Shown: positions 16,663-60,000 of the stretch, piece after piece | Layout: each line of letters begins with the position of its first letter | How positions within the stretch are numbered: position 1 is the first letter of the stretch | From: Clostridium massiliamazoniense | Lineage (GTDB): Bacteria; Bacillota; Clostridia; Clostridiales; Clostridiaceae | Length of the DNA: 64,000 nucleotides | Direction: 5' to 3' | Assembly (NCBI RefSeq): GCF_001403635.1 | Contig: NZ_LN879467.1 | Coordinates: forward strand, 124,001 to 188,000 | Made by a program: the position numbers and the translations under genes | Notes under the pieces: model-generated | What the model saw: the letters and a program-made list of their open reading frames with translations, nothing else | Databases searched by the model: none | Told to the model about the DNA's origin: nothing

Positions 16663-17157
16663 TTATAATAAATTGATTAATTTCTTTTTGAATAGGGAGA
16701 AAAATGGAACGCCTATAATGGTTACAACTACAAATTCTCCCATCATAACTTCTAAAATTGATAACACTAAAGGTAGATTATAAAAGTTATTAAGCATTAA
16801 TCCTATTATTAACCCATTTATTATACTTGGCCATATTGATGATACTATTAATGAATACTTACTATCCTTTAAATATTTTTTTGTTTGTATTATTGCTAGA
16901 CAGCTTATAAATGTAGCTAAGGTTCCAAATATAACATCCCCAATGCCATTTGGACCTAACATATTAGCAATAAAGCATCCCACTGTTAAAGCCCATGTGT
17001 AAGAGGAATTCATAAATACTAATAATACTAGTATCTCTGATATCCTAAATTGAACATTTAAATAACTAATAGGTGCTAATCCTATAGTTAATGCAGCATA
17101 TATTCCTGCTACCATAGCTAACTTCACTAATTTCTTTACATCTTGATTTTTATTCAA
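16663..17157 (-). CDS. queT: QueT-family queuosine-precursor (preQ1) transporter
   Basis: A 164-residue membrane protein with five or six helices. The motifs NVQFRISEILVLLVF and GPNGIGDVIFGTLATFIS are those of the QueT family, predicted S-component-like importers of the queuosine precursor preQ1. I choose the TTG at 17157 because a G-rich Shine-Dalgarno-like stretch (GGGGGGG) is directly upstream; an ATG at 17187 would place that site inside the gene. Many queT genes have a preQ1 riboswitch; I found none in the leader, which is instead close to a large repeat element. Confidence 0.8.
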   Translation of the reverse strand: MNKNQDVKKLVKLAMVAGIYAALTIGLAPISYLNVQFRISEILVLLVFMNSSYTWALTVGCFIANMLGPNGIGDVIFGTLATFISCLAIIQTKKYLKDSKYSLIVSSIWPSIINGLIIGLMLNNFYNLPLVLSILEVMMGEFVVVTIIGVPFFSLFKKKLINLL

Positions 17158-17256
17158 ACTAATCCCCCCCATTAATAAAAATAACATTCAAAATTATATC
17201 ATAGATTTTACCATAAAAAAAAGAGAACATATAAATATAATTATCTAAATGATAAA

Positions 17257-17487
17257 AAGGAGCTTTGTTAAATCAGCACCTTAATTTATATTATTTCTTC
17301 ATCTGCTGAGATAGCTATATAGGTACAAAATGCTGTGACCATTGAACTAGTACTAGAAGCTCTTTATTTTAGAAACTGTTGTAGAAAAAATATTAGAGCT
17401 TCTTTACGTAAGTGAGTGGTCACAAATGATGAACCTATATAGCTAGATAAAAATCAGAGAGGATGTATCTGTAATTCGATACATCCT
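17257..17487 (+). repeat. Element A, copy 1 (long imperfect hairpin bounded by hairpins)
   Basis: First of three near-identical copies. Order: a weak hairpin (AAGGAGCT/CAGCACCTT); the spacer TTAATTTATATTA; nested inverted repeats AGCTATATAGGT/ACCTATATAGCT, TGTGACCA/TGGTCACA and AGAAGCTCT/AGAGCTTCT; and a final hairpin GAGGATGTATC/GATACATCCTC followed by T5. It sits between queT (minus) and the 3' end of the exporter gene (minus). No coding potential is seen. It may be a miniature inverted-repeat element or a structured RNA. Confidence 0.8.
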
Positions 17488-17503
17488 CTTTTTCAAATAA
17501 TCT

Positions 17504-19201
17504 TTATGCTACTTTTTTTAATTTATTAGGTATAAATAAAGTTACTACAATTGCTATAGCTGCTATTACTGCTAATGTTATAAACATCTTCTCAAAACCT
17601 TGGTTCATAACATGTTGGTAAGTACTTTCTATTGTATTCTTTACTTTATCTAACTCTAATAAATAAGTGTTTTTCATTTGTTCTACAGCATCTGCTGGTG
17701 ATACATTAGGTGGTAATTTTCCCTTTACTCCAGCTTCTATTTTTGGTGCCATAGTTGTAAATTGTTTACTTACGAAATTTTTCATTATAGGGAATATAGT
17801 TGTAACATTGGCATTTTGGAATGCATTTACCATTGATGAACTTCCTGCACCAGCATTCATAGATAAAGCCATTCCATGAGCTTTAGGAAGTAATGGCATT
17901 ATTTTTCCTGGCACCTTTGTTCCTGCTTCAACTATAAATCCAACTAAAAGATTTGGTGATAAAGCTATTCCTAAAGATCTTATAAGTGATAATGTTGATT
18001 GTGCTGATCCTATTTCATCCTTAGGTACAGAACTTTGAACTACATAGTTAAGAGGTGTTCCCATTGTAAACCCTACTCCTAATCCAAGGAATGCTAATCC
18101 TATTATTAATGCAGTCATACTTAATGTTGATGTTACAATAAATGCTAATGTTAATAATCCTATTAATGAACAAATAAATCCAAATAATAAAACTATTTTA
18201 GCTGACATTTTGTCTATAAGTCTTCCACCAAAAGGAGCTGCAAATCCAGAGAATAAAGCCATTAAAGTTACGAAATATCCTCCTGAACCTAATTTTAATT
18301 TTAAAACATTACTACAGAATTGAGGTAAGAATACAACTACCATAAGGCTTGCTCCTACTAAAAATGCTATAATAAACACAGCAACCATTTGTCTATTTTT
18401 AAAATATTTAAGGTTTATTATTGGATCCTCAGCCTTAGATTCAACAAATATAAGTATAGGTAATAATATTATTGCTGCTATTAAGTAAGGATAACATCCT
18501 ATTGACTTAAAACTCTCCCCTAGTTTTACAAAATTTAAGTTTGTTATAAATAACATAAGAGATATAATAAATAATCCTGATACTACACTTCCAGCAAGGT
18601 CCATTTTTTTCTTTATTCTTTCAACTTTAGGTATTTTTATTCTAATTAAAGCAATTAAAACAATTAAACATATTGGAAGATTTATAAAGAATAATATTCC
18701 CCATCTATCAGCACCCCAAGTATCTAAAATAAATGATCCTAATGATGGTCCTATAAGAGTGGCTATTCCATTTATTCCACCAACCATTCCAAGAGCAGCT
18801 CCTCTTTTTTCTGGCGGGAAACTATCTCCTATAAATGCAGTAGCTATTGGAAGTACTCCTCCAGCTCCTATAGCTTCTATTACTCTAGCAATTAATAAAA
18901 ATTCATAACTTGAATAGTAATTTGATATTCCACATAGGAATGATCCTACTCCAAATATCAACACACTAATTGTAAACATTAATTTTAAACCATTTCTATC
19001 TGCTAGTTTACCTATTATAGGCATAGATACAGCATAAATTAAAGAATATAATGTTATTATCCATATACTAGCATCTGCAGAAATATGTAAGGTATTTCCC
19101 ATTACAGTACGTGCTGGTGAAATTATAGCAGTATCTAAGGATCCCATAAATATACCAGCTAAGAACATTATAAGCAATACTTTAGATGATTTCTTATCCA
19201 T
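17504..19201 (-). CDS. DHA2-family (EmrB/QacA) 14-TM drug exporter
   Basis: 565 residues, 14 predicted transmembrane helices, major facilitator superfamily. The loop GKLADRNGLKLMF (motif A), the antiporter-type motif GAALGMVGGINGIATLIGPSLGSFI (motif C) and a long final loop place it with proton-coupled multidrug exporters. The large C-terminal loop (about 430-530) is longer than average and outside. ATG with AAGGAG upstream. A MerR-type promoter lies at 19278-19308. No regulator gene is nearby. Substrates cannot be read from sequence. Confidence 0.88.
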   Translation of the reverse strand: MDKKSSKVLLIMFLAGIFMGSLDTAIISPARTVMGNTLHISADASIWIITLYSLIYAVSMPIIGKLADRNGLKLMFTISVLIFGVGSFLCGISNYYSSYEFLLIARVIEAIGAGGVLPIATAFIGDSFPPEKRGAALGMVGGINGIATLIGPSLGSFILDTWGADRWGILFFINLPICLIVLIALIRIKIPKVERIKKKMDLAGSVVSGLFIISLMLFITNLNFVKLGESFKSIGCYPYLIAAIILLPILIFVESKAEDPIINLKYFKNRQMVAVFIIAFLVGASLMVVVFLPQFCSNVLKLKLGSGGYFVTLMALFSGFAAPFGGRLIDKMSAKIVLLFGFICSLIGLLTLAFIVTSTLSMTALIIGLAFLGLGVGFTMGTPLNYVVQSSVPKDEIGSAQSTLSLIRSLGIALSPNLLVGFIVEAGTKVPGKIMPLLPKAHGMALSMNAGAGSSSMVNAFQNANVTTIFPIMKNFVSKQFTTMAPKIEAGVKGKLPPNVSPADAVEQMKNTYLLELDKVKNTIESTYQHVMNQGFEKMFITLAVIAAIAIVVTLFIPNKLKKVA

Positions 19202-29657: not shown

Positions 29658-31313
29658 TTACTTAGTAACTTTCTCTAAAGCAATTAAAGCTGCACCCATT
29701 GCTCCACAAATTTGAGGCTCTTCTGCTATAAATAATTTAGTATTTAACTTAGCTTCTATTTCTTTTACAACCCCTTCATTTTTGGCAACTCCACCAGTCA
29801 TCATGTACTTCTCATTTCTTCCAACTCTATCTACAAGACCTACTGTTTTTCCTGCTATAGACTTATTAACACCATGGATTATATCTCTCTTTTCTTTATT
29901 ATCAGCAATTAATGATACAACCTCTGACTCAGCAAAAACTGAACATACACTTGTTATATTTAGGTCTTCTTTAAATGTTAATCCTTCTGTTGACATCTCA
30001 GCTAATTCTATTTCCAATGTTTTTGCAATCATCTCTAGAAATCTTCCAGTCCCAGCAGCACATTTATCATTCATAACAAAACTTTTTACATTCCCATTTT
30101 CATCCAGACTTATAGCCTTACTATCTTGTCCTCCAATATCAATTATTGTTCTAACCTCTGGATTGAAAAAGTGAGCTCCCTTTCCATGACAAGTTATCTC
30201 TGTTACATTTTCATCAACAAAGGATATATTATATCTACCATATCCTGTCCCAACTATCATTGCTAAATCATCTCTTTTAATTCCAGCTTCTTCAAGAGCT
30301 AGATTTATTGACTTTTCAGCAGAATCCATACTCTTTGCTCCTGTTCTTACAATTACACTACTTAAAACATTCTTATCTTTATCTAAAATAATTACATTAG
30401 TTGATGTTGAACCACTATCTATACCTGCTACGTATATTTTCTCTTTATCAATAATCTTCTTCATTTTTATATTCCCTCCATTTAATTGCTCATTAAATGC
30501 TTCTATACGAGTTTTTATTTGTCCATTACTTTGATTAGTTAAATCAGTTTCAACTTTTAAAATTGGAATTCCAGCCTTTTGTAAATTTACATATTCAAAA
30601 GAATAATGATCACAGAATTTGACTGTATGATAAACTATCCCTTTTAACTTTGGATCCTCTATTAAGGCTTTTCTATTTGTTGTATCAGCCATTCTCATAC
30701 AAGGAGTATAGGATAGTATTTCATCAGCATACCATTCTATAGCTTTCTCCACATTATCAAAATTCTTTATATGAGTTAAATAATGTTCTCTAGAACAAGT
30801 TTGATTTACTAGTGGATAAGGTAAATTTTCTTGAACCTTATATAAGAAATCCTTTGAAGCCTTAGCCCCTAAAACTGCAATATAATCGCTATCAGGTGTA
30901 CCTTTAGCAACATATTTATATAAACTATTATTAAATTTATTTATATCAAATTTTTTACCACTAAATTCTTCATATGCCTTTATGAACTTTAAAATTTCTG
31001 TCTTAAACATTCCTTTTGCGCAACAGTTATTTTTTCTTGGTAAATCCATCATATAAATAAACTTAATTGATGGTATTTTATCTAAAGTATCTTTAAGTCT
31101 CTTTATTGAATCACAACAGTTTACTAAAAATACCTTATCTATTTTTTTATCTATTATCATATCTAAGGCTACCTTACTATAGGAACACATTGTTGGATGT
31201 AGATATTTTTCAGACTTTGAAAATTCCTCTATATTACTATCCATTATAAATCCTTCTTCATCAAAGGCATCAAATACAGCAAAAGGACTATATTTACAAA
31301 TACAAGCTATCAT
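29658..31313 (-). CDS. 2-hydroxyacyl-CoA dehydratase-type subunit fused to its ATPase activator
   Basis: 551 residues in two parts. Residues 1-285 are a short HgdB/D-like component with several conserved Cys (for example 43, 66-67, 97-98, 173, 205, 234). Residues 293-545 are an ASKHA-fold activator (GIDSGSTSTNV, IGGQDSK, DKCAAGTGRFLE with Cys418, SVCSVFAESE with Cys457). In this family the activator, with a [4Fe-4S] cluster between two subunits, injects an electron at the cost of ATP. Fusion of the two is unusual. An internal GGAGGG and ATG at Met284 (30464) suggest the activator may also be made separately. Two bases separate it from the upstream gene. Confidence 0.85.
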   Translation of the reverse strand: MIACICKYSPFAVFDAFDEEGFIMDSNIEEFSKSEKYLHPTMCSYSKVALDMIIDKKIDKVFLVNCCDSIKRLKDTLDKIPSIKFIYMMDLPRKNNCCAKGMFKTEILKFIKAYEEFSGKKFDINKFNNSLYKYVAKGTPDSDYIAVLGAKASKDFLYKVQENLPYPLVNQTCSREHYLTHIKNFDNVEKAIEWYADEILSYTPCMRMADTTNRKALIEDPKLKGIVYHTVKFCDHYSFEYVNLQKAGIPILKVETDLTNQSNGQIKTRIEAFNEQLNGGNIKMKKIIDKEKIYVAGIDSGSTSTNVIILDKDKNVLSSVIVRTGAKSMDSAEKSINLALEEAGIKRDDLAMIVGTGYGRYNISFVDENVTEITCHGKGAHFFNPEVRTIIDIGGQDSKAISLDENGNVKSFVMNDKCAAGTGRFLEMIAKTLEIELAEMSTEGLTFKEDLNITSVCSVFAESEVVSLIADNKEKRDIIHGVNKSIAGKTVGLVDRVGRNEKYMMTGGVAKNEGVVKEIEAKLNTKLFIAEEPQICGAMGAALIALEKVTK

Positions 31314-31315
31314 TA

Positions 31316-32587
31316 TTATTTTCCTCCATTGTTTTCTAACATCTCAAAAAAAGCCTCTAATCTAGTTTTATTTTGACCCTCTTGGCTATTTCTTCTATCC
31401 ACAGCATCCCCATCAATACTAAGCATAGGTATACTATTTTCATTTAACATATCCTTTAAAATTAAAGTTCCACCACTACTTTCCTTACATCCCCAATGAC
31501 AAAAATTAACTACACCATCTGCATTTAATTCTTTTGCAAATTTTACTATATTGTTTCCTCTTCTTTCAAAAGGCCCATTATAACTATTATTAATTATTTT
31601 TCTCGCAATAGAGCCATAAGGATCATTTACATCTAACTTATGAAGATAATCAACATTCATATCTGATATTAAAAGCTGATAATCCTTATTACAATCTAAA
31701 TATTCTCTTATAGATTCACTATAAAAAGGAAGTACATGTGCCCAAAGAATTTTTTTCTTTGGCTTTAATTCTGGGTAATTTTCTATATCCTTTAGTAACA
31801 TTTCATAAAACTTAAGAGTATCTTTTCTTCCCATCCCTGGATGAGTTGTAAATACCTTAAACATCTCACTTGTTACTGTGTTTGGAAAATACTTATTTTT
31901 TAATAAGTTTAAATATTTTTCATGATATTCTATAGTTTTATTTTCTGTTAATATTATTTCCTTTAATTTATCTTCATTTAATTTTTCTTTTAAATTGTCC
32001 TCAATGAAAGTAACCATCTCTTTTAATTGTTCTTTAACATATTCCTCGCCGTCCTTAGAGTACTCATAAGGAATATCTAAAACAAAACTCTCAATTCCAT
32101 AAATTTCAGATGCTAATCTAAAAGTATTTACATTTGCATCACAAGCTGTCGTTGTTGTAATAGCAAATCTAGGTGTTGGTAATACTTTAGACATTGCAGC
32201 TCCAACAAAGGTTTTATGATAAGAACATAAACTCTCTGTTATTCCCTCTCTCTCAGCCCTATCTATAAAACCATCTTCACATTTTGTTCCTGATAAATAT
32301 GATGACATTGCTTCAATAAGTTGAGGATACATATCAAAAGCATGTAAAAATTCAGTAGGAGTAAATATATTTACAAATGCAGCTCTATCTGGCTTTTTTA
32401 GAGGTTCTAAGGTAAACTTCATACATAGTTCAGATAGGTAATTTAATGATTTAGGTAAATTTTTATCTCCTTTAAGTTTCAATGATAAGTACTGCAAATT
32501 GTATCCTACTTTTAAATATTTAAGTACTTTATCTGGATTATCCATATTGTTTTTTAAAATATTACCATAAGTTTTTATAACATCCAT
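31316..32587 (-). CDS. 2-hydroxyacyl-CoA dehydratase or double-cubane-type Fe-S subunit
   Basis: 423 residues, same family (2-hydroxyglutaryl-CoA dehydratase D-component, PF06050) as the fused partner. Cys residues that may bind clusters lie in SLCSYHKTF, TTACDAN and NFCHWGCKESSGG. The gene starts the two-gene operon, with ATG after AAAGGATGAT. The pair could be a dehydratase for fermenting 2-hydroxyacyl-CoA, or a double-cubane reductase. Lack of a CoA transferase or hydroxyacid dehydrogenase next to it favours the second or an unknown reductive role; that is inference. Confidence 0.82.
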   Translation of the reverse strand: MDVIKTYGNILKNNMDNPDKVLKYLKVGYNLQYLSLKLKGDKNLPKSLNYLSELCMKFTLEPLKKPDRAAFVNIFTPTEFLHAFDMYPQLIEAMSSYLSGTKCEDGFIDRAEREGITESLCSYHKTFVGAAMSKVLPTPRFAITTTTACDANVNTFRLASEIYGIESFVLDIPYEYSKDGEEYVKEQLKEMVTFIEDNLKEKLNEDKLKEIILTENKTIEYHEKYLNLLKNKYFPNTVTSEMFKVFTTHPGMGRKDTLKFYEMLLKDIENYPELKPKKKILWAHVLPFYSESIREYLDCNKDYQLLISDMNVDYLHKLDVNDPYGSIARKIINNSYNGPFERRGNNIVKFAKELNADGVVNFCHWGCKESSGGTLILKDMLNENSIPMLSIDGDAVDRRNSQEGQNKTRLEAFFEMLENNGGK

Positions 32588-33407: not shown

Positions 33408-33516
33408 TTTTATTTGGATAAATTTGATTAGTATCTTATTAAAGTTAAAGTACAAAAATAATATTATGCTAGGTTTAACCTTAAATTTAAATTTTCAATA
33501 TTAAGGAGTGTTAATT

Positions 33517-34131
33517 ATGAACTTTGATGAATTAGCAAAAGAATGGGATAATGAAAAGAATCTTACAAGAGCAAAATCAATAGGTGATGAAATAAAAAGA
33601 TTATTGGATAACAAAAAAAGTTTAAGAGCCATGGACTTTGGGTGTGGAACAGGTCTTGTTTCATTTTATCTGAAAGATTATTTCTCTGATATATTATTAG
33701 TTGATTTATCTGATGGCATGATAGATGAAGCTAATAAAAAAATCCAAGATACTAAGGTAGAAAACCTACATACTTGGAAGGGTAACATATTAGAATACAA
33801 TGAAAACAAAAAATTCGATGTAATTTATGCACCTTTAGTATTACATCATATAGATAACTATAGAGAAATAATTGTTAAGTTAAAAAATCTATTAGAAGAT
33901 GGTGGTTCACTTATAATAATAGATATGATAAAGGATAATGGTGCTTTCCATAAAGGTTCAACTGTAGTTCCAATGCACAATGGTCTTGACCCACAAGTTA
34001 TTAAAACTATGCTTGATGATATAGGTTTTGATTCTATTACTGATTCTAATGAATTTTTTGAAGGTATTAAAGAAAAAGAAGGTAATACTGTTCACTTTAA
34101 ATTATTTAGTGTTTCAGGAGCAACAAAATAA
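33517..34131 (+). CDS. Class I SAM-dependent methyltransferase
   Basis: About 204 residues. The SAM-binding motif I is AMDFGCGTGLVSFYL, then LVDLSDGMIDEA (motif II), and APLVLHHIDNY; these put it in the methyltransferase_11/12 group (UbiE-like). AAGGAG at 33503-33508 places the start at ATG 33517; a GTG at 33508 would overlap it. Substrate unknown. Its terminator is the leading hairpin of element A copy 2. Confidence 0.85.
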   Translation: MNFDELAKEWDNEKNLTRAKSIGDEIKRLLDNKKSLRAMDFGCGTGLVSFYLKDYFSDILLVDLSDGMIDEANKKIQDTKVENLHTWKGNILEYNENKKFDVIYAPLVLHHIDNYREIIVKLKNLLEDGGSLIIIDMIKDNGAFHKGSTVVPMHNGLDPQVIKTMLDDIGFDSITDSNEFFEGIKEKEGNTVHFKLFSVSGATK

Positions 34132-34156: not shown

Positions 34157-34390
34157 AAAGGTGCTGTATCAAATCAGCACCTTAATTTATATTACTTTTA
34201 TAAATGTATTTTTTCATCTGCCGAGATAGCTATATAGGTACAAAATGCTGTAACCATTGAACTAGTACTAGAAGCTCTTTATTTTCGAACAATAGTTTCG
34301 TTACGTAAGTGAGTGGTCACAAATGATGAACCTATATAGCTAGATAAAAGGCAGAGAAGATCTACCTGTAATTTTTATACCCTTCTTTTT
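34157..34390 (+). repeat. Element A, copy 2
   Basis: Same order of parts as copy 1: GGTGCTG/CAGCACC hairpin, spacer TTAATTTATATTACTTTTAT, CTGCC...GGCAG outer pair, AGCTATATAGGT/ACCTATATAGCT, TGTAACCA/TGGTCACA, then a shortened tip (CGAAC/GTTTCG), ACGTAAGTGAGTGG, and a weaker end hairpin. Lies between a plus-strand gene end (34131) and a minus-strand gene end (34391), so both genes read into it. The tip differs from copies 1 and 3. Confidence 0.8.
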
Positions 34391-35437
34391 TTACTCTCCA
34401 ACTACATTTAAGATCATTTCTTCATTTACTACCAAATCTTCCTCTGCACTTTTGTTATCAACATACTGTTCTAAAAAACTAGAAACTTTTTCCCAATATA
34501 ATTCTGGTTCTAAAACTATAGATTGTGCATGTCCAGCACCATGAACAACAAATTTTTCCTTTGGACATTTTGCCGCTTCATATAGCTTGTCTAACATATA
34601 ATAAGGCACAAATTTATCTTCATCTCCATGAATAAATAACATTGGAATCTTTGAGTTTTCAAGTTGTTTTATAGCTGAAGCTTCTCTTAATCTATATCCA
34701 GCCCTTACTTTTGTTATAATATCAGCAACTGTTAACACAGGTCTTTTAAGAGCCTTTTGGTTAAACATCTCAATTTGATAACCAAATTCCTCCCATGCAG
34801 ATGTATATCCACAATCTTCTATAGCAGCTTTTACATTAGGCACTAATTCTTCTCCAACAGTCATCATAACAGTTCCTGCTCCCATTGATATTCCATAAAG
34901 AACAATTTCAGCATTTTTGTCTTTTTCTAATATATAATCAATCCATTTAAGTATATCCTTCCTATCATGCCATCCCATTCCTATGTATTTTCCTTCACTT
35001 TTACCATGTCCTCTTAAATTTGGAGTTAAGACGTTGTAATCACTTTCCTTAAATTGTTGAACCAGATAAGACATATCCTTACAATTCCCAGCATAACCAT
35101 GGATTGTTATTACCCACTTATGACTTTCTTTATTAGCTATTACTTCACACCCATGCAATTTTAATCCGTCATAAGAATCTATATACACATCTTTATAGTT
35201 AGATTCATTTTCAAACCATCCTATATATACCTCTTCTAATTTATGTATTTCCTTAGATACCTCTTCGTGTTTCTTTTCTGTATCACTTGTAAACCTCTTA
35301 TAAAAGTCTGTTCTCTTTTTTGGATCTCTATCTAGGGCTATATCATAAAAGTAATTACTTATAGCTCCTATTGCGCCTGCAGCTGCAATTCCAACTAAAG
35401 ATGTTGCCCCTATTATCGCTAAACTTTTCTTTTTCAT
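34391..35437 (-). CDS. Alpha/beta hydrolase with N-terminal anchor
   Basis: 348 residues. A hydrophobic N-terminus (6-33) is followed by an alpha/beta hydrolase fold: HGYAGNCKDM oxyanion loop, LRGHGKSEG, nucleophile Ser184 in YGISMGAG, Asp in HGDEDKFVP (272/274) and His303 in GAGHAQS. Similar to Bacillus YqkD/YfhR-type acyl hydrolases; substrate unknown. The GGAGATGAG ribosome binding site is part of a 12-base inverted repeat with the leader upstream. Confidence 0.82.
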   Translation of the reverse strand: MKKKSLAIIGATSLVGIAAAGAIGAISNYFYDIALDRDPKKRTDFYKRFTSDTEKKHEEVSKEIHKLEEVYIGWFENESNYKDVYIDSYDGLKLHGCEVIANKESHKWVITIHGYAGNCKDMSYLVQQFKESDYNVLTPNLRGHGKSEGKYIGMGWHDRKDILKWIDYILEKDKNAEIVLYGISMGAGTVMMTVGEELVPNVKAAIEDCGYTSAWEEFGYQIEMFNQKALKRPVLTVADIITKVRAGYRLREASAIKQLENSKIPMLFIHGDEDKFVPYYMLDKLYEAAKCPKEKFVVHGAGHAQSIVLEPELYWEKVSSFLEQYVDNKSAEEDLVVNEEMILNVVGE

Positions 35438-36421: not shown

Positions 36422-36724
36422 AAACCCTTCCCCCTTTTTTTCTTAAATTAATTAAACATCCCATTAAATCTTCTCCATCATCCATCTTTGCTCCTTGTTA
36501 AAAAGGAAAATATCTGTAGATTTTATTTCTAGGTAACCCATATTATTACCTTATAATTGTTCTACCTATTGATTATTTTCCCTCTTCTTATATTTTTAAT
36601 ATAGAAAAATTTCGTGAAATTTCATAAGCTAAGTTATTTTTCTTTTTTTTAATGATATAATAAATATAAATATGAACTTTGTGTAACTAAATTCATATTA
36701 AAAATTATTTTGGAGGTTTATTTT

Positions 36725-38503
36725 ATGAACGGAAATTGGAGCTTAACTGAACTTTATAATGATTTCAATTCAATAGAGTTTAAAAATGATATGAAACTAT
36801 TAAATGAAAAAATAGAAAGTTTTAAGAATTTTGTTGATAACATTACTTCTAGTTATGATAACTTAGAAGATAAATTAATAAATTACATAAATGAAACTAA
36901 TGAGTTTAAAAATCTTTCAAATAAGCTTTTAATGTATTCTAACCTTGTTGTTAGTGTTGATACTAAAAATAGTACTGCCTTAAAAACTTTAGAAATAATA
37001 GAACAAAACCTAGCGAAAATGGCTGATTCTTCTGCTAAGTTATATAAATGGATTGGTTCTATAAATAATTTAGATGATGTACTGTCTAATTCTGAACTAT
37101 TAATGGAGCATAAATTCCACTTTAATGAAATAAAAGAAATGAGCAAATATTTATTATCTGAAAAGGAAGAATTACTAATAGCTCAAATGAGAGGTTCTGG
37201 GTCTTCATCATGGACAAAACTAAAAGACCTTGAAACATCTTCTCTTTTAGTTGATATTATTCTAGATGGAGAAAATAAAAGTCTTCCTCTTAGTGTAATA
37301 AGAAATATGGCATTTTCTAATGATGCTAATATTAGAAAAACTGCTTATGAAGCTGAACTAAAAGCTTATAAAAAAATTGAAAATTCTGTAGCTGCTGCCT
37401 TAAATGGTGTTAAAGGTGAGGTAATAACAGTTTCAAAAATAAGAGGCTACCATAGTCCACTTGAAGAAACTCTTATAAATTCTAGACTTGATGAAAAATC
37501 TTTAAATGCAATGTTAGCAGCTATGAAAGAAAGCCTTCCTATGTTTAGAAAGTACTATAAAAGAAAAGCTGAAATTTTAGGACATAAAGGTGCTTTACCT
37601 TTCTATGATTTATTTGCTCCAATAGTAGAAGGTGAACCAAGCTTTACTTTTGAAGAAGCTAGAGATTTTATAGTTACTAATTTTAGCACTTTCTCACCTA
37701 AATTAGGTAACTTTGCAAAAAGAGCAATAGAAAATAATTGGGTAGATGTATATCCAAAGGAAGGGAAAGTTGGAGGAGCTTTTTGTGAAAACCTTCATAT
37801 GATAGGTGAAAGTCGCATAATGCTTAACTTTGGTGGTACTCTTAGTGATGTTATAACTCTTGCTCATGAATTAGGTCATGGATATCATGGAGATTGCTTA
37901 TTATCACAAAGCCCTATAAATGCAGATTATCCTATGCCAATAGCAGAAACAGCTTCTACTTTTTGTGAAACAATAGTAAAAAAAGCAGCTGTAAAAAATG
38001 CTACTCCTAAAGAAGCTTTATCAATTTTAGAAAAAGAAATATCAGATTGCGGACAAATAATTGTTGATATTTTAAGTAGATTTCTTTTTGAAAGTGAAGT
38101 TTTTGAAAAAAGAGCAGTTTCTTCATTAAGTGCATCTGAATTAAATGAAATAATGCTTAAAGCTCAAAAAGCTTCTTATGGAGACGGACTAGATGAAAAC
38201 TTCTTACATCCATATATGTGGGCTTGTAAACCACACTACTACTATGCAACAACTAATTTTTATAACTTCCCTTATGCCTTTGGTTTACTATTCTCAAAGG
38301 GATTATATGCTGAATATCTAAAAAGAGGAAATGATTTTGTAGAAGCTTATGATCAATTACTTAGTGTTACTGGTAAAAATAAACTTTCTGATATAACAAA
38401 ATTAATGAACATTGATATTCAATCCACAGATTTTTGGAAAAATTCATTAAAATTAATAGAAGAAGATATAGAAAACTTCATTAAACTTAGTAAAGAAATT
38501 TAA
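36725..38503 (+). CDS. pepF: M3-family oligoendopeptidase F
   Basis: 592 residues of zinc metallopeptidase. His381-Glu382-x-x-His385 in LAHELGHGYHG and Glu408 in IAETAST, 24 residues downstream, are the metal site. The C-terminal GLLFSKGLY segment is also typical. It cleaves oligopeptides in the cytoplasm (no signal peptide). The ATG at 36725 has GGAGG 8 bases upstream; the in-frame TTG at 36710 would overlap it. Single gene, ended by element A copy 3. Confidence 0.93.
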   Translation: MNGNWSLTELYNDFNSIEFKNDMKLLNEKIESFKNFVDNITSSYDNLEDKLINYINETNEFKNLSNKLLMYSNLVVSVDTKNSTALKTLEIIEQNLAKMADSSAKLYKWIGSINNLDDVLSNSELLMEHKFHFNEIKEMSKYLLSEKEELLIAQMRGSGSSSWTKLKDLETSSLLVDIILDGENKSLPLSVIRNMAFSNDANIRKTAYEAELKAYKKIENSVAAALNGVKGEVITVSKIRGYHSPLEETLINSRLDEKSLNAMLAAMKESLPMFRKYYKRKAEILGHKGALPFYDLFAPIVEGEPSFTFEEARDFIVTNFSTFSPKLGNFAKRAIENNWVDVYPKEGKVGGAFCENLHMIGESRIMLNFGGTLSDVITLAHELGHGYHGDCLLSQSPINADYPMPIAETASTFCETIVKKAAVKNATPKEALSILEKEISDCGQIIVDILSRFLFESEVFEKRAVSSLSASELNEIMLKAQKASYGDGLDENFLHPYMWACKPHYYYATTNFYNFPYAFGLLFSKGLYAEYLKRGNDFVEAYDQLLSVTGKNKLSDITKLMNIDIQSTDFWKNSLKLIEEDIENFIKLSKEI

Positions 38504-38512
38504 TTTTTTAAA

Positions 38513-38761
38513 AAGGATGTATCAAATTATAGATACATCCTTTCTGCCTTTTATCTAACTATATAGGTTCATCATTTGTAACCACTCACCTACGTAAAGA
38601 ATCTCTAATATTTTTTCTACAACAGTTTCTAAAATAAAGAGCTTCTAGTACTAGTTCAATGGTCACAGCATTTTGTACCTATATAGCTATCTCGGCAGAT
38701 GAAAAAAACACATCTATAAAAGTAATATAAATTAAGTGGCTGATTGACACAGCCACTTTTC
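38513..38761 (-). repeat. Element A, copy 3 (inverted)
   Basis: Reverse orientation relative to copies 1 and 2. In reverse order it has GTGGCTG/CAGCCAC, a spacer ending in T7, CTGCC...GGCAG, AGCTATATAGGT/ACCTATATAGTT, TGTGACCA/TGGTTACA, AGAAGCTCT/AGAGATTCT, and GGATGTATC/GATACATCC. It is between the plus-strand pepF end and the minus-strand PAP2 gene end, so both neighbours read into it. Confidence 0.8.
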
Positions 38762-38766
38762 TAATA

Positions 38767-39318
38767 TTAATTATACTTTTTTTTATTATATCTTTTTCTA
38801 TATAACTTGTGCAGATAAATTGTTATCATAGCACTTATTATTCCTAATACAATCCCAGCTAATACATCACTAGGATAATGAACTGTTAAATATACCCTAG
38901 AAAAAGCTATTAAACAAGCTAGTATTATACTTGGCACAGCTGCTTTTTTCACATAATAAGCTAATATTATAGCACATGCAAAAGCTGAGGATGTATGTCC
39001 TGATGGAAAAGAATAAGATTGTGGTTTTTTTATCAATAAATCAAGATGTTGCAATGTATTAAAAGGTCTTGGCCTTTGAAACATATGCTTTAATATTACT
39101 TCTCCTAATATAGTGTTTATTACTAATGCACATAACATTAATATTCCAACTTTTCTAAACTTATTAGTGAATAGTAAAGCTATAGCTATCAATATCCATA
39201 TTAATCCCATGTTACCTAAATTGGTAATAAAAATCATTATTAGATTTAAAAAATGATTTTGAACATGATTTTGCATGAAATATAATATGGATGAATCAAT
39301 ATTTTGTATTAATGCCAT
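38767..39318 (-). CDS. PAP2-family membrane phosphatase
   Basis: 183 residues with about five helices. The three-part active site is present: KHMFQRPRPF (C1), PSGHTSSAFA (C2, His) and RVYLTVHYPSDVLAGI (C3, Arg/His). It is a member of the phosphatidic-acid/undecaprenyl-pyrophosphate phosphatase group, thus may recycle a lipid carrier of wall synthesis or remove phosphate from lipids. ATG after GGGGGAGTAGT. It reads into element A copy 3. Confidence 0.88.
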   Translation of the reverse strand: MALIQNIDSSILYFMQNHVQNHFLNLIMIFITNLGNMGLIWILIAIALLFTNKFRKVGILMLCALVINTILGEVILKHMFQRPRPFNTLQHLDLLIKKPQSYSFPSGHTSSAFACAIILAYYVKKAAVPSIILACLIAFSRVYLTVHYPSDVLAGIVLGIISAMITIYLHKLYRKRYNKKKYN

Positions 39319-39394: not shown

Positions 39395-42300
39395 TTAAGA
39401 AGCACAGTACTCACCATCTACCCATCCAATATTTCCATTGTAATTAACTTCATACCATCCGTTTTCTTCTCCTATTACCTGAAGTTCAGTGCCATAGGGT
39501 AAACATGTTATGACACCTTCAGTGCCATTTGGGCCATAAGTCATATATAACCCTATAGGAGATGCCACTGTTATTTCTTTATTTTTATTTTGGCTAACAC
39601 TACTGTTATTCCCATTATTTAAGGTTGTTGTATATTTACTATCAATCCATCCTATTTTACCATTATAAGTGATTTTATACCAGCCATTATATTCTCCAAT
39701 TACATTTACCCTTGTTTCATAATTTAAACATGTTATGTTTCCACTATTCCCACTTGGTCCTTCTGTCATCCATAATCCAATTGGTGACTCTACTACAACA
39801 CTTCCCATTGATTTAGAATTTCCATCTTCACTACTTTTCTCAGTATTACTTTCAGTATTACCTTGTGTTGTATTACTAATTTTATCACTAGAAGAATTAT
39901 TGTTACCATTGAAGTTTGCTGATGTTGTATAAGCTCCATCTACCCAACCTACTTGTCCATTATAGTTTACCTTATACCAACCATTTTCTTCTGCTGTTGC
40001 CATTACCTTTGTATTGTATGGTAAACATACTATATTCCCTGAGTATGGTTTTGGTCCTTTTGTCATCCATAACCCTACTGGTGATTCTATAGTTATTTCT
40101 TGTCCTACATTTTGCCTTGCTGTTTTAACTGCTTTTTTTGCAGTTGATTTTTCCTTCACTGATTTTGTTGGAGTTACATTATTAGATTGAGTTTTTAAAG
40201 CTGATGTATATGCTCCATCTATCCAACCTTTTTGTCCATTATAATTTATTTCGTACCAACCATTGCTTTCCCCGATTACATTTACTGTAGTATTGTAATT
40301 TAAACAAGTTATATTTCCACTATATGGTCTTGGTCCTTCTGTCATCCATAGTCCTACTGGTGATTCTATTGTAACTTGACCTAATATGTTACTCTTTGAA
40401 GAAACCTTTTTAGTAGTGTTAGTGCCATTACTATTTGAATTGTTACTATTGTTACTACTATTATTAGTATTAAAGTTAGCTGATGTTGTATAAGCTCCGT
40501 CTACCCAGCCTACTTGTCCATTATAGCTTATCTTGTACCAACCATTTTCTTCTGTTGTTGCCATTACCTTTGTATTATATGGTAAGCATACTATATTCCC
40601 TGAATATTGCTTTGGTCCTTTTGTCATCCATAATCCTACTGGTGATTCTATAGTTATTTCTTGTCCTGCATTTTGACTTGCTTTTTTATCTGCTTTCTTT
40701 GTAGTTGATTTTTCTTTTACTGATTTTGTTGGGGTTACATTATTATTAGATTGAGTTTTTAAAGCTGATGTATATGCTCCATCTATCCAACCTTTTTGTC
40801 CATTATAATTTATTTCGTACCATCCATTACTTTCTCCAATTACATTTACTGTAGTATTGTAATTTAAACAAGTTATGTTTCCACTATATGGTCTTGGCCC
40901 TTCTGTCATCCATAGTCCTACTGGTGATTCTATTGTAACTTGGCCTAATATGTTGCTCTTTGCAGAAACCTTTTTAGTAGTGTTAGTGCCATTACTATTT
41001 GAATTATTACTACTATTGTTATTTGAATTATTACTATTGTTACTATTATTAGTACTAAAGTTAGCTGATGTTGTATAAGCTCCGTCTACCCAACCTTCTT
41101 GTCCATCATAACTTATCTTATACCAACCATTTTCTTCTGCTGTTGCCATTACCTTCGTATTATATGGTAAGCATACTATATTCCCTGAATATGGCTTTGG
41201 TCCTTTTGTCATCCATAATCCCACTGGTGATTTAATAGTTATTTCTTGTCCTGTATTTTGACTTGCTTTTTTAATTGCTTTCTTTGCAGTTGATTTTTCT
41301 TTTACTGATTTTGTTGGAGTTACATTATTAGATTGAGTTTTTAAAGCTGATGTATATGCTCCATCTATCCAACCTTTTTGTCCATTATAATTTATTTCAT
41401 ACCAACCATTACTTTCTCCAATTACATTTACTTTAGTATTGTAATTTAAGCAAGTTATGTTTCCGCTATATGGTCTTGGACCTTTTGTCATCCATAATCC
41501 TACTGGTGATTCTATTGTAACTTGACCTAATATATTGCTCTTTGAAGAGTTTCCACTATTGGTTGAATTATTATTAGTAGTAGAATTACTTCCTTGATTT
41601 ATTCTTGATAATCCTGTTGTATATTCTGAATAAATCCATCCATATCTTCCGTTATAATAAACTTTCTCCCAGCCATTATTTGTTTCTTCAAAAACAAAAA
41701 CCTTCGTTGCATTAGGTATACTTGTTATGCTATTAGAATTAAATAATGGCACATAATTCATCTCTAGACCTTCTAAGGAATTTATAACAGTTGTTCCTAT
41801 AGCCTTACTTACACTTGGAGGTATATTTGCATTTTCAACATTTTCAGACTTACTCTCTGTTGGATTTCCTAATCCTGTTGTATACTGACTATCTATCCAG
41901 CCATATTGTCCATCATAGTAAACCTTATACCATCCATCTTTAACTTCTATTACATTTAATACTATGTTATCACCTATGCAATCTAATTTAGCAGTATTTG
42001 CACTAGGTCCAGCATTCATCCATAATCCTACTGGTGATGTTATAGCAATTCTCCCAATCCATTTGTTTGTTGGAGCATTTTGAACTGTTCCTCCTGTATA
42101 GTTCCCTGTATATTTCCAGAAACAAGTTGCTTTATATTGGTTATTCCATCCATTACTTGAATTAGCTACTTGACCATTAAGATTTCTATTTCCATAGCTT
42201 GAATTAAACATATAAGCTTCATCGCCCATTACATAGGCAATTCCTTTAGCTTTATCTTTCCATCCCATAAATAAAAATGTATGATATGGTCCTGCAAAAC

Positions 42301-42814
42301 ATATATCACCCTTTTGTATATAATTGAAATCTGTCTCTCTTTGCCACCCATTATTATTTAAAAAACTTTCTAAATTTGTAGTATAAGACATGCTGTCTGG
42401 AACAGGAACACCTATTGCCCTTAAACAAGAAGATTGAAAATAAACACAAGTATTTTCAGGGTTTCCATTATGTAGGCTTATAGCTTCATCCATAGCTGCT
42501 GTTTGGTTTGCTGGTGAACTTTCATATTCATATAATTTCTTATTTAGCGGTGATGCAAATCCATTAGGATTAAAACTTAGATCAGCTGCAAAACCATTTT
42601 CCTGTTCTGGAACACCTATAAATGCTGTAGTTATTCCTACCTTATACTTTTGTGAATCTGTTGAAGTTGCAGAACTTTGCTTAGTAACCTTCATAGGTCT
42701 TGCCAACAATACTTCATTAGCAGAATCTTTTCCTATATGTGTTGCCCCTGTTGCACCTACAGCTGTCAGCGCACTAGCTATAGCAATAAGACCAGTTAGT
42801 TGCTTTCTATTCAT
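39395..42814 (-). CDS. Secreted Cys-peptidase protein with ten SH3_3 domains
   Basis: 1139 residues. Signal peptide (1-24), a cysteine amidase/peptidase-like domain (about 95-236, candidate Cys123 and His178), then ten bacterial SH3 domains joined by Ser/Asn/Thr linkers. Each domain has the pattern SPVGLWM.xGP...W(Y/E)...NG..GW(I/V). Domains 3 to 8 alternate between an A type (ILGQVTIESPVGLWM) and a B type (GQEITIESPVGLWM), i.e. an AB pair repeated three times. The protein should bind and cut peptidoglycan. GGAGGGATGATTA upstream of ATG. Assignment of the Cys-domain to a family (CHAP or NlpC-like) is not certain. Confidence 0.85.
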   Translation of the reverse strand: MNRKQLTGLIAIASALTAVGATGATHIGKDSANEVLLARPMKVTKQSSATSTDSQKYKVGITTAFIGVPEQENGFAADLSFNPNGFASPLNKKLYEYESSPANQTAAMDEAISLHNGNPENTCVYFQSSCLRAIGVPVPDSMSYTTNLESFLNNNGWQRETDFNYIQKGDICFAGPYHTFLFMGWKDKAKGIAYVMGDEAYMFNSSYGNRNLNGQVANSSNGWNNQYKATCFWKYTGNYTGGTVQNAPTNKWIGRIAITSPVGLWMNAGPSANTAKLDCIGDNIVLNVIEVKDGWYKVYYDGQYGWIDSQYTTGLGNPTESKSENVENANIPPSVSKAIGTTVINSLEGLEMNYVPLFNSNSITSIPNATKVFVFEETNNGWEKVYYNGRYGWIYSEYTTGLSRINQGSNSTTNNNSTNSGNSSKSNILGQVTIESPVGLWMTKGPRPYSGNITCLNYNTKVNVIGESNGWYEINYNGQKGWIDGAYTSALKTQSNNVTPTKSVKEKSTAKKAIKKASQNTGQEITIKSPVGLWMTKGPKPYSGNIVCLPYNTKVMATAEENGWYKISYDGQEGWVDGAYTTSANFSTNNSNNSNNSNNNSSNNSNSNGTNTTKKVSAKSNILGQVTIESPVGLWMTEGPRPYSGNITCLNYNTTVNVIGESNGWYEINYNGQKGWIDGAYTSALKTQSNNNVTPTKSVKEKSTTKKADKKASQNAGQEITIESPVGLWMTKGPKQYSGNIVCLPYNTKVMATTEENGWYKISYNGQVGWVDGAYTTSANFNTNNSSNNSNNSNSNGTNTTKKVSSKSNILGQVTIESPVGLWMTEGPRPYSGNITCLNYNTTVNVIGESNGWYEINYNGQKGWIDGAYTSALKTQSNNVTPTKSVKEKSTAKKAVKTARQNVGQEITIESPVGLWMTKGPKPYSGNIVCLPYNTKVMATAEENGWYKVNYNGQVGWVDGAYTTSANFNGNNNSSSDKISNTTQGNTESNTEKSSEDGNSKSMGSVVVESPIGLWMTEGPSGNSGNITCLNYETRVNVIGEYNGWYKITYNGKIGWIDSKYTTTLNNGNNSSVSQNKNKEITVASPIGLYMTYGPNGTEGVITCLPYGTELQVIGEENGWYEVNYNGNIGWVDGEYCAS
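39905..41530 (-). repeat. Tandem repeats of about 550-595 bp in the SH3 gene
   Basis: Three near-identical copies of an SH3 domain pair with its linker. Matching segments such as GATGTTGTATAAGCTCC recur near 39920, 40470 and 41065, and ATGTATATGCTCCATCTATC near 40207, 40769 and 41350. Linkers differ in the number of Asn/Ser codons. Confidence 0.85.
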
Positions 42815-57004: not shown

Positions 57005-60000
57005 CTATTTTTTTCTTCTAAATAAGAATAGTCCACTAATCATTGCCATTATACCTGCAATTACTCCAGCTTCTTTTGCTGTATGCTCAGTACCTTGTAT
57101 ATTTAATCCAGTATGTGGTAATACAGTTTGTACTGTACTGTTATCTTCATTAGGTCCATTTACTAAATTGTTATCAGTATAAGTTGAACCTGTTGAGTCA
57201 TTAACACTTGAGCTATTAAATGGAGTTTCAGTGCTTCCATTTGTGCTTGTAGTATTATTTGCTGTTCTAGCACTTGATGTGTTTCCAGTTACTATATTTC
57301 CTTGTCCATTATTATTAACTACTGGAATATTGTGATTTACATTTGAAGTTGCTGAAGTTTTAACTTCTCCACCATTTGCGCTTGCATGTGCTGTAGCTGA
57401 ACTATGAGCTTCTCCATTTCCACTTACAGTAGCATGAGTACTTGTTGAAGTATGAGCCTCATTTCCTGTAGTTCCTTTATTATCATTATGATTTACATCA
57501 GTTTTCTTATTTGTATCTTTTCCTGTTGATGGTTTAACATCTGGTGTTTTGTCCTTACCAGTATTATCTCCAGTTGAAGGTCTTGCTGTATTATCCTTGT
57601 GTTCTGGTGTTACCGGCTTCACAGCTGTTGTTTTGTCTGTATCTTTTCCTGTTGACGGCTTAACATCTGATGTTTTGTCCTTACCATTATTATCTCCAGT
57701 TGAAGGTTTTGTTGTATTATCCTTATGTTCTGGTGTTACTGGCTTCACAGGTGTTGTTTTATCCGTATCTTTTCTTGTTGATGGCTTAACATCTGATGTT
57801 TTGTCCTTACCAGTATTGTCTCCAGTTGAAGGTTTTGCTGTATTATCCTTGTGTTCTGGTGTTACCGGCTTCACAGGTGTTGTTTTATCTGTATCTTTTC
57901 CTGTTGATGGCTTAACATCTGATGTTTTATCCTTTCCAGTATTATCCCCAGTTGAAGGTTTTATTATATTATCTTTATGCTCTGGTGTTACTGGTTTAAC
58001 TTCTGGTGTCTTATCAGTTGACACCTTAGTTATGTGATACACTATATGAATATCTTTCTTTCCAAATACCTTTGGCAAATCTTTTTCTGAAACTGTATGT
58101 CCATTAACAGTTATATTTTTTACCTTATAACCTTTTGGTATTGTTGGTGTATCTTTTGTTATAGGCGTTCCTACATCTCCAATTACTTTAATTATTGGCT
58201 CTTTTGCCCCCCCAACAACATTTACTGTTACAGTTGTTTTATCCTTATGTTCTGGTGATACTGGTTTCACAGGTGTTGTTTTGTCTGTATCTTTTCCTGT
58301 TGATGGCTTAACATCTGATGTTTTGTCTTTACCAGTATTGTCTCCAGTTGAAGGTTTTGCTGTATTATCCTTGTGTTCTGGTGTTACTGGCTTCACAGAT
58401 GTTGTTTTATCTCTATCTTTTCCTGTTGATGTTTTGTCCTTTCCAGTATTATCTCCAATTGTAGTTTTTGTTGTACTACTTGATGTAGAGCTTCCAGCTC
58501 CTGTAGTATTTGATGTGCTACTTCCACTTGGTGTAATTACTGTTTTATAGTTGTAAATTATAGTAACTCCATTTGGTTCAAATTTTCCATGATAATTCTC
58601 AAAGTTTTGTACATCACTTGGAGTAGTTATTGTCTTACCATTTACAGTTATACTTTCTAATTTTAAATACTTATTATGAGGTAAATCATAACTAGCTGTT
58701 TTTCCAGGTATACCCTGTAATTCTCCACTTCCATATGGTGCACCATTAATCTTTATTTCATATTTTAATGATCCTTTTTTTTCTACATTTTTTCCTATAA
58801 CATATTTAACAGTTTGTATCTTATCTGTTATTATGCTTGGTAAATTGTGTATTAAATCTTTGTCTTCTTTTGTTGTTAATGTCTTTCCGTCTACTATAAC
58901 TTTAACTATATGATATCCTTTTGGAGGTGTATAAGGTTTTAAGTTTGTATCTGCTCCAACTTCACCATTTGCAACTACAGTAGGTTCTTCTATAATTGTA
59001 CCTTTTGTTGTTACTACTTCTTGTTTTACTTCTCCTGTAGGTATCTTAGTTATGTGATACACTATTTTGCTTGGAATATTTCCATATACCTTAGGTAAAT
59101 CTTTTTTTGAAATTGTCTGTCCGTTAACAGTTATATTTATTATCTTGTATCCTTTTGGTATTACTGGAGTGTCTCCTGTTATTTTACTTCCCACATTTCC
59201 TGTTGTTGTAGTACTTGAGAATATTTTTGTTCCATCTGTAACTGTTACTGTAGCTGATGATTTATCAGGTGATACTACATAAGTAAGTTGACCTTCCTTA
59301 TCGCTAGGTATTGTATCTGGTAACATATAAATTACCTTACCTCCAGTTACTGTTGATATAACCTTTCCATTATATAATACCTTATCTAAATGATATCCAT
59401 TTGGAATAGCTGTTTTATCACATGTTACTTCACTACCTTCTGGACCTTTAGCAACTATTGTATCTTTTACTAATGTCTTTCCATCTTCTGTAACTACTTT
59501 AGCTTTTATATCATTAGGTTGATTTTCAACTAAATGATAAACTATAGTCTGATCTTTATCACCATAAGTTGTTGGAACTTTATCTACTATTTTACCATCT
59601 ACAGTTATGTTTCCTATATGATAACCTGCTGGAACATTCGGAGTAGTTATACCATTATCCTCACCAGGCATACCAGGTTTAGTAGTTGTAGTTGATATAG
59701 TTTTATTCCCTTCTACAACTTTCACTGTATCCTGTACAGGAACATGTTTTACAGTTATGACAATGTTATTGTCACTTTCTTTATTCGTATCACTATTATA
59801 AGTTACTTCATATTTACCATCTTTATTAGGTGTAACTTCTTTACCATTAATTGTTACCTTAACTATTTTATATCCTTCTGGAACATTAGGAGTTATTACA
59901 TCCTCTTTTGAATCAGGTTTTCCACTTCCTACTTCCTTTGAAGGAACTAATGTAACAACTTTTCCATTGATATCTGTTACTACTTTTGCATAAGTTTTGT

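What the first reader, a model, noticed from the sequence alone, without database searches (positions are those of the whole stretch)
17257..17487. Triplicated 230-250 bp element: long imperfect hairpin bounded by terminator-like hairpins
Copies at 17257-17487, 34157-34390 and 38513-38761 share the same order of parts. Nested inverted repeats (AGCTATATAGGT/ACCTATATAGCT, TGTGACCA/TGGTCACA, AGAAGCTCT/AGAGCTTCT) would fold most of the element into one long hairpin. Conserved unpaired stretches (CATTGAACTAGTACTAG, TTACGTAAGTGAG) and end hairpins (GTGCTG-type and GGATGTATC-type) complete it. No protein is encoded. It looks like a MITE or a structured RNA. I do not recognise it as any named family, but cannot search.
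Basis: partly seen in the sequence, partly recalled or inferred. Interest (0 to 1): 0.75.

Follow-up and report, generated by a model that had tools for sequence, protein, structure and literature searches.

The report
Unnamed hairpin repeat at gene ends
Three copies of a non-coding DNA element that folds into a long hairpin sit right behind the stop codons of unrelated genes; they belong to a large hairpin family spread through many related genomes, and we found it in no RNA-family database or paper that we searched.

Summary
In detail: three non-coding copies (79.6-86.5% alike), the third inverted, with no Rfam match. A covariance model of the three finds relatives in 6 of 206 genomes of the host's likely family; a second model from 32 copies matches 81 of 206. 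Stems covary (29 of 38 pairs changed on both sides, 0 of 500 shuffles as high) around fixed internal-loop letters, so a folded single strand seems to be under selection. The element has a direction and an address: one end lies within 40 bp of a stop codon of a gene reading in for 80 of 119 copies, the other for 8 of 116; all 3 window copies obey. The genes are unrelated. Most orthologues of one window gene have a plain terminator there. Best reading: a REP/BIME-like dispersed palindrome, presumably spread by a hairpin-recognising enzyme, parked between stop codon and terminator and so becoming the mRNA's tail. Dispersal, fold and address are computed; enzyme, transcription and RNA function are inferred. 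No transposase, target duplication or expression evidence was found.

The parts
17257..17487 (+). Element copy 1, in the 316-bp gap between the QueT-like gene (16663-17187, -) and the MFS transporter gene (17504-19201, -). Its right end lies 16 bp from the transporter's stop codon, and that gene reads into it.
17259..17280 (.). Left end hairpin of copy 1 (one mismatch); on the - strand it is followed by a T run, so it could be the far terminator for the transporter mRNA
   Evidence: sequence; custom scan puts a terminator end 247 nt after the stop; the tool scan did not flag this one
17313..17444 (+). Long imperfect hairpin of copy 1, outer arms AGCTATATAGGT (17313-17324) / ACCTATATAGCT (17433-17444)
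17340..17356 (+). Conserved 5' side of the basal internal loop, CATTGAACTAGTACTAG
17404..17416 (+). Conserved 3' side of the basal internal loop, TTACGTAAGTGAG
17458..17489 (.). Right end hairpin of copy 1 (12 pairs), next to the transporter's stop codon; flagged terminator-like in that gene's direction
34157..34390 (+). Element copy 2; together with 25 bp it fills the gap between the convergent methyltransferase (33508-34131, +) and hydrolase (34391-35437, -) genes. Right end 0 bp from the hydrolase stop codon.
34158..34183 (.). Left end hairpin of copy 2, terminator-like on both strands
34228..34341 (+). Long hairpin of copy 2; tip shorter by 18 nt
34349..34367 (-). Small hairpin (7 pairs) near the hydrolase stop codon, flagged terminator-like in that gene's direction
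38513..38761 (-). Element copy 3, inverted; fills the gap (but for 9 and 5 bp) between the convergent PepF-like M3 peptidase (36710-38503, +) and PAP2 (38767-39318, -) genes. Its right end (low coordinate) lies 9 bp from the peptidase stop codon.
38557..38688 (-). Long hairpin of copy 3; internal-loop sides at 38645-38661 and 38585-38597
38512..38543 (.). Right end hairpin of copy 3 (12 pairs), next to the peptidase stop codon; flagged terminator-like in that gene's direction
38734..38758 (.). Left end hairpin of copy 3, with the compensated stem change; flagged terminator-like in the PAP2 direction, and followed by TTTTCT in the peptidase direction

Best explanation
The three copies belong to a dispersed, non-coding, imperfect-palindrome family of clostridia that behaves like the REP/BIME repeats of enterobacteria. 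SHOWN by computation: many copies per genome, no tie to particular genes, frequent inverted pairs, covarying stems around fixed unpaired letters, a defined direction, and one end at or next to the stop codon of a gene reading in, in most copies of the genomes examined. INFERRED: an enzyme that recognises the folded strand (an IS200/IS605- or RAYT-like single-strand transposase, or another hairpin-binding recombinase) spreads the element and tends to place it just behind stop codons, in the slot of the gene's terminator. Once there it is transcribed as the mRNA's 3' tail: stop codon, long hairpin, terminator. It ends the message and may protect or slow it. Later, copies at one site are replaced by other copies through recombination. 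The window copies are a divergent subfamily that lacks the tip motif of the relatives.
For: Copies: R1 gives 115 matches at E<=0.01 in 6 genomes. An HMM built only from relatives' copies (which R1 had picked) finds copy 2 at 1.3e-5 and two pieces of copy 1 at 4.3e-5 and 9e-4, not copy 3. R2 matches 81 of 206 family genomes. Fold: 29 of 38 pairs change on both sides; 166 such cells against 36 in shuffles (0 of 500) and 12-24 when slid. Loop letters are the same in 31-32 of 32 copies at columns 78-81, 85 and 86, and in 30-31 at 218, 219 and 221. Address: right end <=40 bp from (or overlapping) an inward stop codon in 80 of 119, left end in 8 of 116; 15 of 17 single copies from 17 further genomes, left 4 of 17. 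The element's conserved end runs up to the stop codon: TAG|AAATATTACGAC, TAA|AAGGATATTACGAC, TAA|GAATATTGTG; TAG is 25 of 58 there and 40 of 166 in other genes of those loci. Mosaics: 33 of 34 close pairs lie - then +. No gene tie. Swapping: at 15 orthologous-site pairs the cores are 76-99.6% alike while flanks are 88-97%. Site with and without: PepF/VOC gap 52 nt in L009 and L023, 343-358 nt with a weak R2 match (45 and 51 bits) in L005 and L008. Analogy: GTAG REPs often supply TAG stops (PMC3733652, passages); RAYTs are proposed to mobilise BIMEs (PMC2817692, abstract and passages).
Against: No transposase or RAYT was found: the longest stop-to-stop frame inside 34 close pairs is 116 codons, and genomes were not scanned for such a gene. 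No target duplication could be read. In three sister species a copy was present beside the gene in both relatives at all three sites probed, so recent jumping is not shown. 31 of 119 copies have a right-hand gene reading away. The laxer tool scan flags a stop-proximal terminator-like hairpin in the gene's direction in all three window copies, so messages there might end before the long hairpin; and 50 of 85 element-bearing gene ends have no terminator within 600 nt by my strict scan. The with/without case rests on weak matches (45-51 bits), and in L005 and L008 the left end, not the right, is nearer the PepF stop. RNA folding energy favours the + strand (97 of 129), opposite to the mRNA of the adjacent gene; most of the G-U excess comes from two pairs near the tip. 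Covariation could also arise from quasi-palindrome correction during replication. Three of the four genomes counted are sister species, so copies are not independent.
Confidence: 0.47

Rival explanations
1. A host-selected 3'-UTR structured RNA: a protein (ribonuclease, RNA chaperone or ribosome factor) binds the conserved loops of the hairpin at mRNA 3' ends and sets message stability or termination. It spreads only by recombination between copies.
For: Covariation plus fixed loops, narrow distance to stop codons, a strict terminator within 80 nt of the stop in 0 of 85 element-bearing ends against 33 of 182 control ends, sites kept in sister species.
Against: No shared gene set across lineages, patchy distribution (81 of 206), copy replacement at one site, an orthologous gap with and without a (weakly matching) copy, composite mosaics, and the + strand preference.
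Confidence: 0.28
2. Decayed non-autonomous copies (MITEs) of an ordinary DDE insertion sequence; the hairpin is only paired terminal repeats kept alike by replication slippage.
For: Long inverted arms; a solo copy with end repeats of the AAAAGGAAATTACGACATTTT type on both sides, read by eye (L187); mosaics; high copy number.
Against: The most conserved letters are mid-arm mismatches and tip motifs, not the ends; correction would erase mismatches; a stop-codon address is not expected from DDE targets; no partner gene seen in composites.
Confidence: 0.15
3. Nothing more than unusually long intrinsic terminators that arose separately.
For: Placement at 3' ends; terminator-like end hairpins in all three window copies; terminator stems are known to covary (PMC5381666, passages).
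Against: Sequence homology across copies and species, fixed loops, no T run on the long hairpin itself in the window; short terminator-like hairpins are present as well.
Confidence: 0.06

Closest known systems
REP / BIME repeats with RAYT transposases (enterobacteria, Pseudomonas, Stenotrophomonas)
   Same: Imperfect palindromes with fixed unpaired letters, high copy number, alternating-orientation composites, gene 3' ends, element end supplying TAG stop codons (PMC3733652, PMC12306157 and PMC2817692; passages read).
   Different: About 190-300 nt instead of 20-40 bp; conserved internal loops instead of a GTAG/CGTC end tag; no RAYT seen; Clostridium does not occur in the text of those three papers.
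EFAR elements of Enterococcus faecalis (recalled; no paper on them found)
   Same: As recalled: mosaic palindromic miniature elements inserted at stem-loop (terminator-like) targets.
   Different: No sequence available here to compare; a stop-codon polarity is not recalled for EFAR.
DDE-type MITEs
   Same: Non-coding, inverted-repeat, dispersed.
   Different: No target duplication or partner IS shown; conservation lies inside the arms.
Intrinsic terminators, including bidirectional ones between convergent genes
   Same: Occupy the same slot; end hairpins have the stem plus T run.
   Different: A homologous long hairpin lies between the stop codon and the far end hairpin.
Candidate structured RNAs in Rfam and in the surveys PMC2864571 and PMC6429828
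   Same: Covariation and conserved loops without a protein.
   Different: No Rfam 15 match at gathering score in the window; the passages read in the two surveys name nothing alike (supplements not read).

Membership tests
REP/BIME-RAYT system | Palindromic units of 20-40 bp with a GTAG or CGTC tag at one end | tested here: not met
   Units are far longer (231-249 nt in the window; hairpins of about 190-280 nt in the 17 further genomes); conserved letters are in internal loops. A GTAG occurs inside the 3' loop of many relatives, not as an end tag.
REP/BIME-RAYT system | Composites of units in alternating orientation | tested here: met
   33 of 34 close pairs in four genomes are - then +.
REP/BIME-RAYT system | A RAYT gene flanked by two inverted units | tested here: inconclusive
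   None inside 34 close pairs (longest frame 116 codons); genomes were not scanned for the gene.
REP/BIME-RAYT system | Extragenic, near stop codons | tested here: met
   80 of 119 right ends within 40 bp; no element block inside an ORF of 90 codons or more (84 blocks had both neighbours).
DDE-type MITE | Terminal inverted repeats at the element ends | tested here: inconclusive
   Read by eye in a solo copy, L187; ends differ between lineages.
DDE-type MITE | Target-site duplication | tested here: inconclusive
   No empty site could be aligned base by base; TA at both ends is a trivial consequence of stop codons.
DDE-type MITE | Autonomous partner IS with the same ends | not tested
EFAR | Sequence kinship with EFAR units | not testable with these tools
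   No EFAR sequence or paper found.
Known Rfam family | Score at or above a gathering threshold | tested here: not met
   0 matches in the window; in 10 relative loci only a tRNA-Sec outside the element reached its gathering score; two matches overlapping the element scored 26.3 (gathering 100) and 21.9 (gathering 62).
Structured single-stranded element (RNA or ssDNA) | Stems kept by compensatory change beyond chance | tested here: met
   copies are related, so cells are not independent.
Intrinsic terminator | GC-containing short stem followed directly by a T run | tested here: inconclusive
   Met by end hairpins, not by the long hairpin itself.

The most novel reading that the evidence does not exclude
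A mobile 3' untranslated region: a bacterial element that copies itself to the base directly behind stop codons and rides on mRNAs as their folded tail, using conserved RNA loops as the handle for its copying enzyme, much as eukaryotic SINEs use theirs. Each insertion would hand a gene a new 3' end.
Probability: 0.12. Interest if true: 0.88.

Novelty: new variant of a known kind. Interest (0 to 1): 0.66.

Why it matters
A family with strong covariation, fixed loops and an address at stop codons matches 81 of the 206 family genomes searched, yet no Rfam 15 model matched it and none of ten literature searches of open-licence papers found it. In the four genomes examined closely it stands behind about twenty genes each among the copies fetched, so it bears on transcription ends, message stability and genome rearrangement in clostridia. 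Its stop-codon polarity gives a direct handle on how bacterial palindromic repeats choose their sites, a long-standing question for REP elements.

Tried and rejected
An exact 21-mer of the loop in genome contigs and a 17-mer in viral contigs found nothing, and blastn against plasmids and phages found nothing: the family diverges in sequence and had to be reached by structure. blastn in 6 genomes and then in the 68 genomes of the genus gave only four matches of 29-40 nt, taken as chance. Viral contig L108 is a lone pattern match in what looks like coding sequence, without the rest of the element. A viral scan with the tip motif gave 12 contigs, of which one had an R2 match, L261 at 36 bits.

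The idea that the element belongs to particular genes was rejected: across lineages only one orthologous pair of adjacent genes and one distant paralogue pair appeared. A TA-target (IS630/mariner) reading of the TATAG ends was considered and left open, because stop codons contain TA anyway. A transposase inside composites was looked for and not seen. Class-level R2 matches below about 60 bits are not counted as secure; the seven that I printed (L219-L221, L223, L226, L229, L232) carry the tip motif or a variant of it. The copies in L005 and L008 (45-51 bits) fall in the same weak range and are used with that warning.

My terminator scan demands a T run directly after the stem; the tool's laxer scan flags stop-proximal end hairpins in the gene's direction in all three window copies, so '0 of 85 within 80 nt' holds for the strict rule only.

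Full report
What is there. The three copies are present at the stated coordinates, the third on the other strand. They are non-coding (30-34 stop-free codons at most) and match no Rfam family at gathering score. Each has an end hairpin on either side and a long imperfect hairpin in the middle, with a mismatched internal loop whose two sides, CATTGAACTAGTACTAG and TTACGTAAGTGAG (TTACGTAGGTGAG in copy 3), are nearly unchanged between copies. Copy 2 and copy 3 almost fill the gaps of two convergent gene pairs, and copy 1 lies behind an MFS transporter gene.

Relatives. The window's own genome is not held. Exact and blastn searches found nothing convincing. A covariance model from the three copies (R1) found matches in 6 of 206 genomes of the family of G001, the nearest named relative (taken to be Clostridiaceae, the tool names no family), and no further carrier among the 225 genomes of the order. 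A laxer search of those six gave 115 matches at E<=0.01: 23, 26, 19, 5, 5 and 37 per genome. A profile HMM built only from relatives' copies, which R1 had picked, recovered two of the three window copies over short stretches (E 1.3e-5 for 39 nt of copy 2; 4.3e-5 and 9e-4 for two pieces of copy 1; copy 3 not listed) in a search of window plus loci. I then fetched 79 loci of four genomes, of which three, G095, G096 and G097, are sister species by flank identity.

Wider spread. A second model from 32 copies, window copies included (R2), matches 81 of 206 family genomes at E<=0.001, often at the ceiling of 14 scored candidates, and 21 of 391 genomes drawn from the class; many of the latter are partial or below 60 bits and I do not rely on them. 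E-values of these models are rough. Of the 68 genus genomes, none is among the six R1 carriers but 18 are among the 81. Most of the 17 high-scoring copies from 17 further genomes (L216-L218, L240-L253; L244 printed only in part) show the basal loop (ATTGAACAAGC / GGCGNAGTGAA type) and a tip motif, CGTTAAGAA ... TGTTTGAGCGNNAGCGAGTTT ... TTTTAGC, with variants. The window copies lack that tip and are a divergent subfamily. A tip pattern occurs in 13 of 398 genomes drawn from the phylum; its backwards control is not independent because the motif nearly mirrors itself. Named records with R2 matches are C. yunnanense (L005) and C. zeae (L008), both weak at 45-51 bits; the genome of C. manihotivorum (G006, reached through L009) has 13 matches.

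Fold under selection. In an alignment of 32 diverse copies (A4; not fitted to a structure) RNAalifold gives 38 pairs; 29 have changes on both sides with the pair kept. The count is 166 cells against a shuffled mean of 36 (0 of 500) and at most 24 for slid versions. The innermost stem reads AGAAGCTCT/AGAGCTTCT, AGAACGGCT/AGCCGTTCT, AAAAGGGCT/AGCCCTTTT, AGAACTTCT/AGAAGTTCT and AGAAATTCT/AGAATTTCT in different copies, while loop columns 78-81, 85 and 86 are the same in 31-32 of 32. Copies are related, so these are not independent events, and replication-driven correction of quasi-palindromes could imitate covariation; but correction would erase the conserved mismatches, so selection on a folded single strand is the simpler reading. 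Whether that strand is RNA or DNA is not decided. RNA energies favour the + strand in 97 of 129 copies (- in 31; all 3 window copies +), but the excess of G-U comes mostly from two pairs near the tip.

Address. Of 120 copies (117 in four genomes plus 3 in the window), 119 have a right-hand neighbour; in 88 the gene reads into the element and in 80 its stop codon is within 40 bp or just inside. For left ends it is 8 of 116. Distances cluster at 22-28 bp in G177 and mostly 4-12 bp in the sister species; the window values are 0, 9 and 16. In G147 and G176 an inward frame ends at the right end in 4 of 5 and 3 of 5 copies. Convergent gaps hold 39 of 84 element blocks against 27 of 186 other gaps, divergent gaps 4 of 84 against 48 of 186 (genes by a simple ORF rule, sister species included). 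Of the 17 copies from further genomes, 15 have an inward stop codon at the right end (-27 to 54 nt) and 4 at the left; over all 32 usable loci, weak matches included, it is 18 and 8 (2 of 34 too short and dropped). Conservation of the element's end runs to the stop codon: TAG|AAATATTACGAC or TAA|AAGGATATTACGAC in the sister species, TAA|GAATATTGTGAAGC in G177. TAG is 25 of 58 stop codons there, 40 of 166 in other genes of the same loci. Adjacent genes are not shared between lineages beyond one orthologous and one paralogous pair.

Slot of the terminator. Of 11 orthologues of the window's PepF-like gene, six (L001-L004, L009, L023) show a plain stem plus T run within about 20 nt of the stop codon, L007 one further off; L005, L008 and L014 have long hairpins and L006 another hairpin (read by eye). 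In five Clostridium loci the same convergent pair (PepF and a VOC-type protein; that name is recalled, not searched) is separated by 52 nt of bare terminator in L009 and L023, by 343-358 nt with a weak family match in L005 and L008, and by 243 nt with another hairpin in L014. By a strict scan 0 of 85 element-bearing gene ends has a terminator within 80 nt of its stop, against 33 of 182 control ends; 35 of 85 have one within 600 nt, median 294 nt, and the window copies at 231, 247 and 253 nt. The other 50 of 85 have none by that rule. The laxer tool scan flags a stop-proximal end hairpin in the gene's direction in all three window copies, which speaks against every message running through the long hairpin.

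Dynamics. 33 of 34 close pairs (gap under 1.5 kb) are in - + order, forming mosaics of about 0.6-1.6 kb. At 15 orthologous-site pairs of the sister species the hairpin cores are 76-99.6% alike although flanks are 88-97%; for example one site holds a solo copy in L156 and composites in L172 and L199. So places persist while content is swapped. At three sites probed directly, L165, L151 and L149, a copy lay beside the right-hand gene in both sister genomes; the left flank lay elsewhere for L149 in both and for L151 in G096, by rearrangement or a contig break. Recent insertion is not shown there.

How it most likely works. I commit to a REP/BIME-like mobile palindrome whose folded strand is read by a hairpin-recognising enzyme and which ends up behind stop codons in the terminator slot, becoming the mRNA tail. 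The dispersal, fold, direction, address and copy swapping are computed results; the enzyme, transcription and effect on the message are inference. The strongest rival is a host 3'-UTR RNA kept for message control. Published REP work offers close parallels: REP ends that supply TAG stop codons (PMC3733652, passages), REPs within 15 nt of stop codons lowering translation (PMC12306157, passages), RAYT-driven BIMEs as a proposal (PMC2817692, abstract and passages), and stable stem-loops near stop codons in low-GC Firmicutes (PMC1590033, passages).

Novelty. Ten paper searches turned up no description of this family; they cover only open-licence papers, and no supplements were read. I rate it a new variant of a known kind: longer, with internal-loop motifs and a sharper stop-codon polarity than REPs as described in the passages read, and not placed in any named family.

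Noticed in passing
window 39395-42814 (-): 1139-aa protein with ten SH3_3 stretches, the second gene from copy 3.
   Followed up: no
window 57005-64000 (-): Open frame of 2331 aa reaching the window edge; not annotated.
   Followed up: no
window 29658-32587 (-): Pair of 2-hydroxyacyl-CoA dehydratase-like genes (HGD-D and BcrAD_BadFG matches).
   Followed up: no
L014 11777-12020: C. folliculivorans has a different long hairpin in the gap behind PepF, where relatives have either a bare terminator or a weak family match; R2 does not score it.
   Followed up: partly
L159 about 2250-2430: A broken composite that holds what looks like an insertion-sequence fragment between its parts; read by eye, not searched.
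   Followed up: no
L089 624-716: A selenocysteine tRNA gene lies about 0.8 kb from a family copy in G176.
   Followed up: no
L149 against G097 and G096; L151 against G096: The two flanks of one copy map to different places in sister genomes, suggesting rearrangements at copies or contig breaks.
   Followed up: partly
element copies, tip pairs 129-178 and 143-162 of A4: G-U pairs on the + strand in 24 and 12 of 29 copies, a hint at the folded strand that conflicts with the mRNA sense of the adjacent gene.
   Followed up: partly
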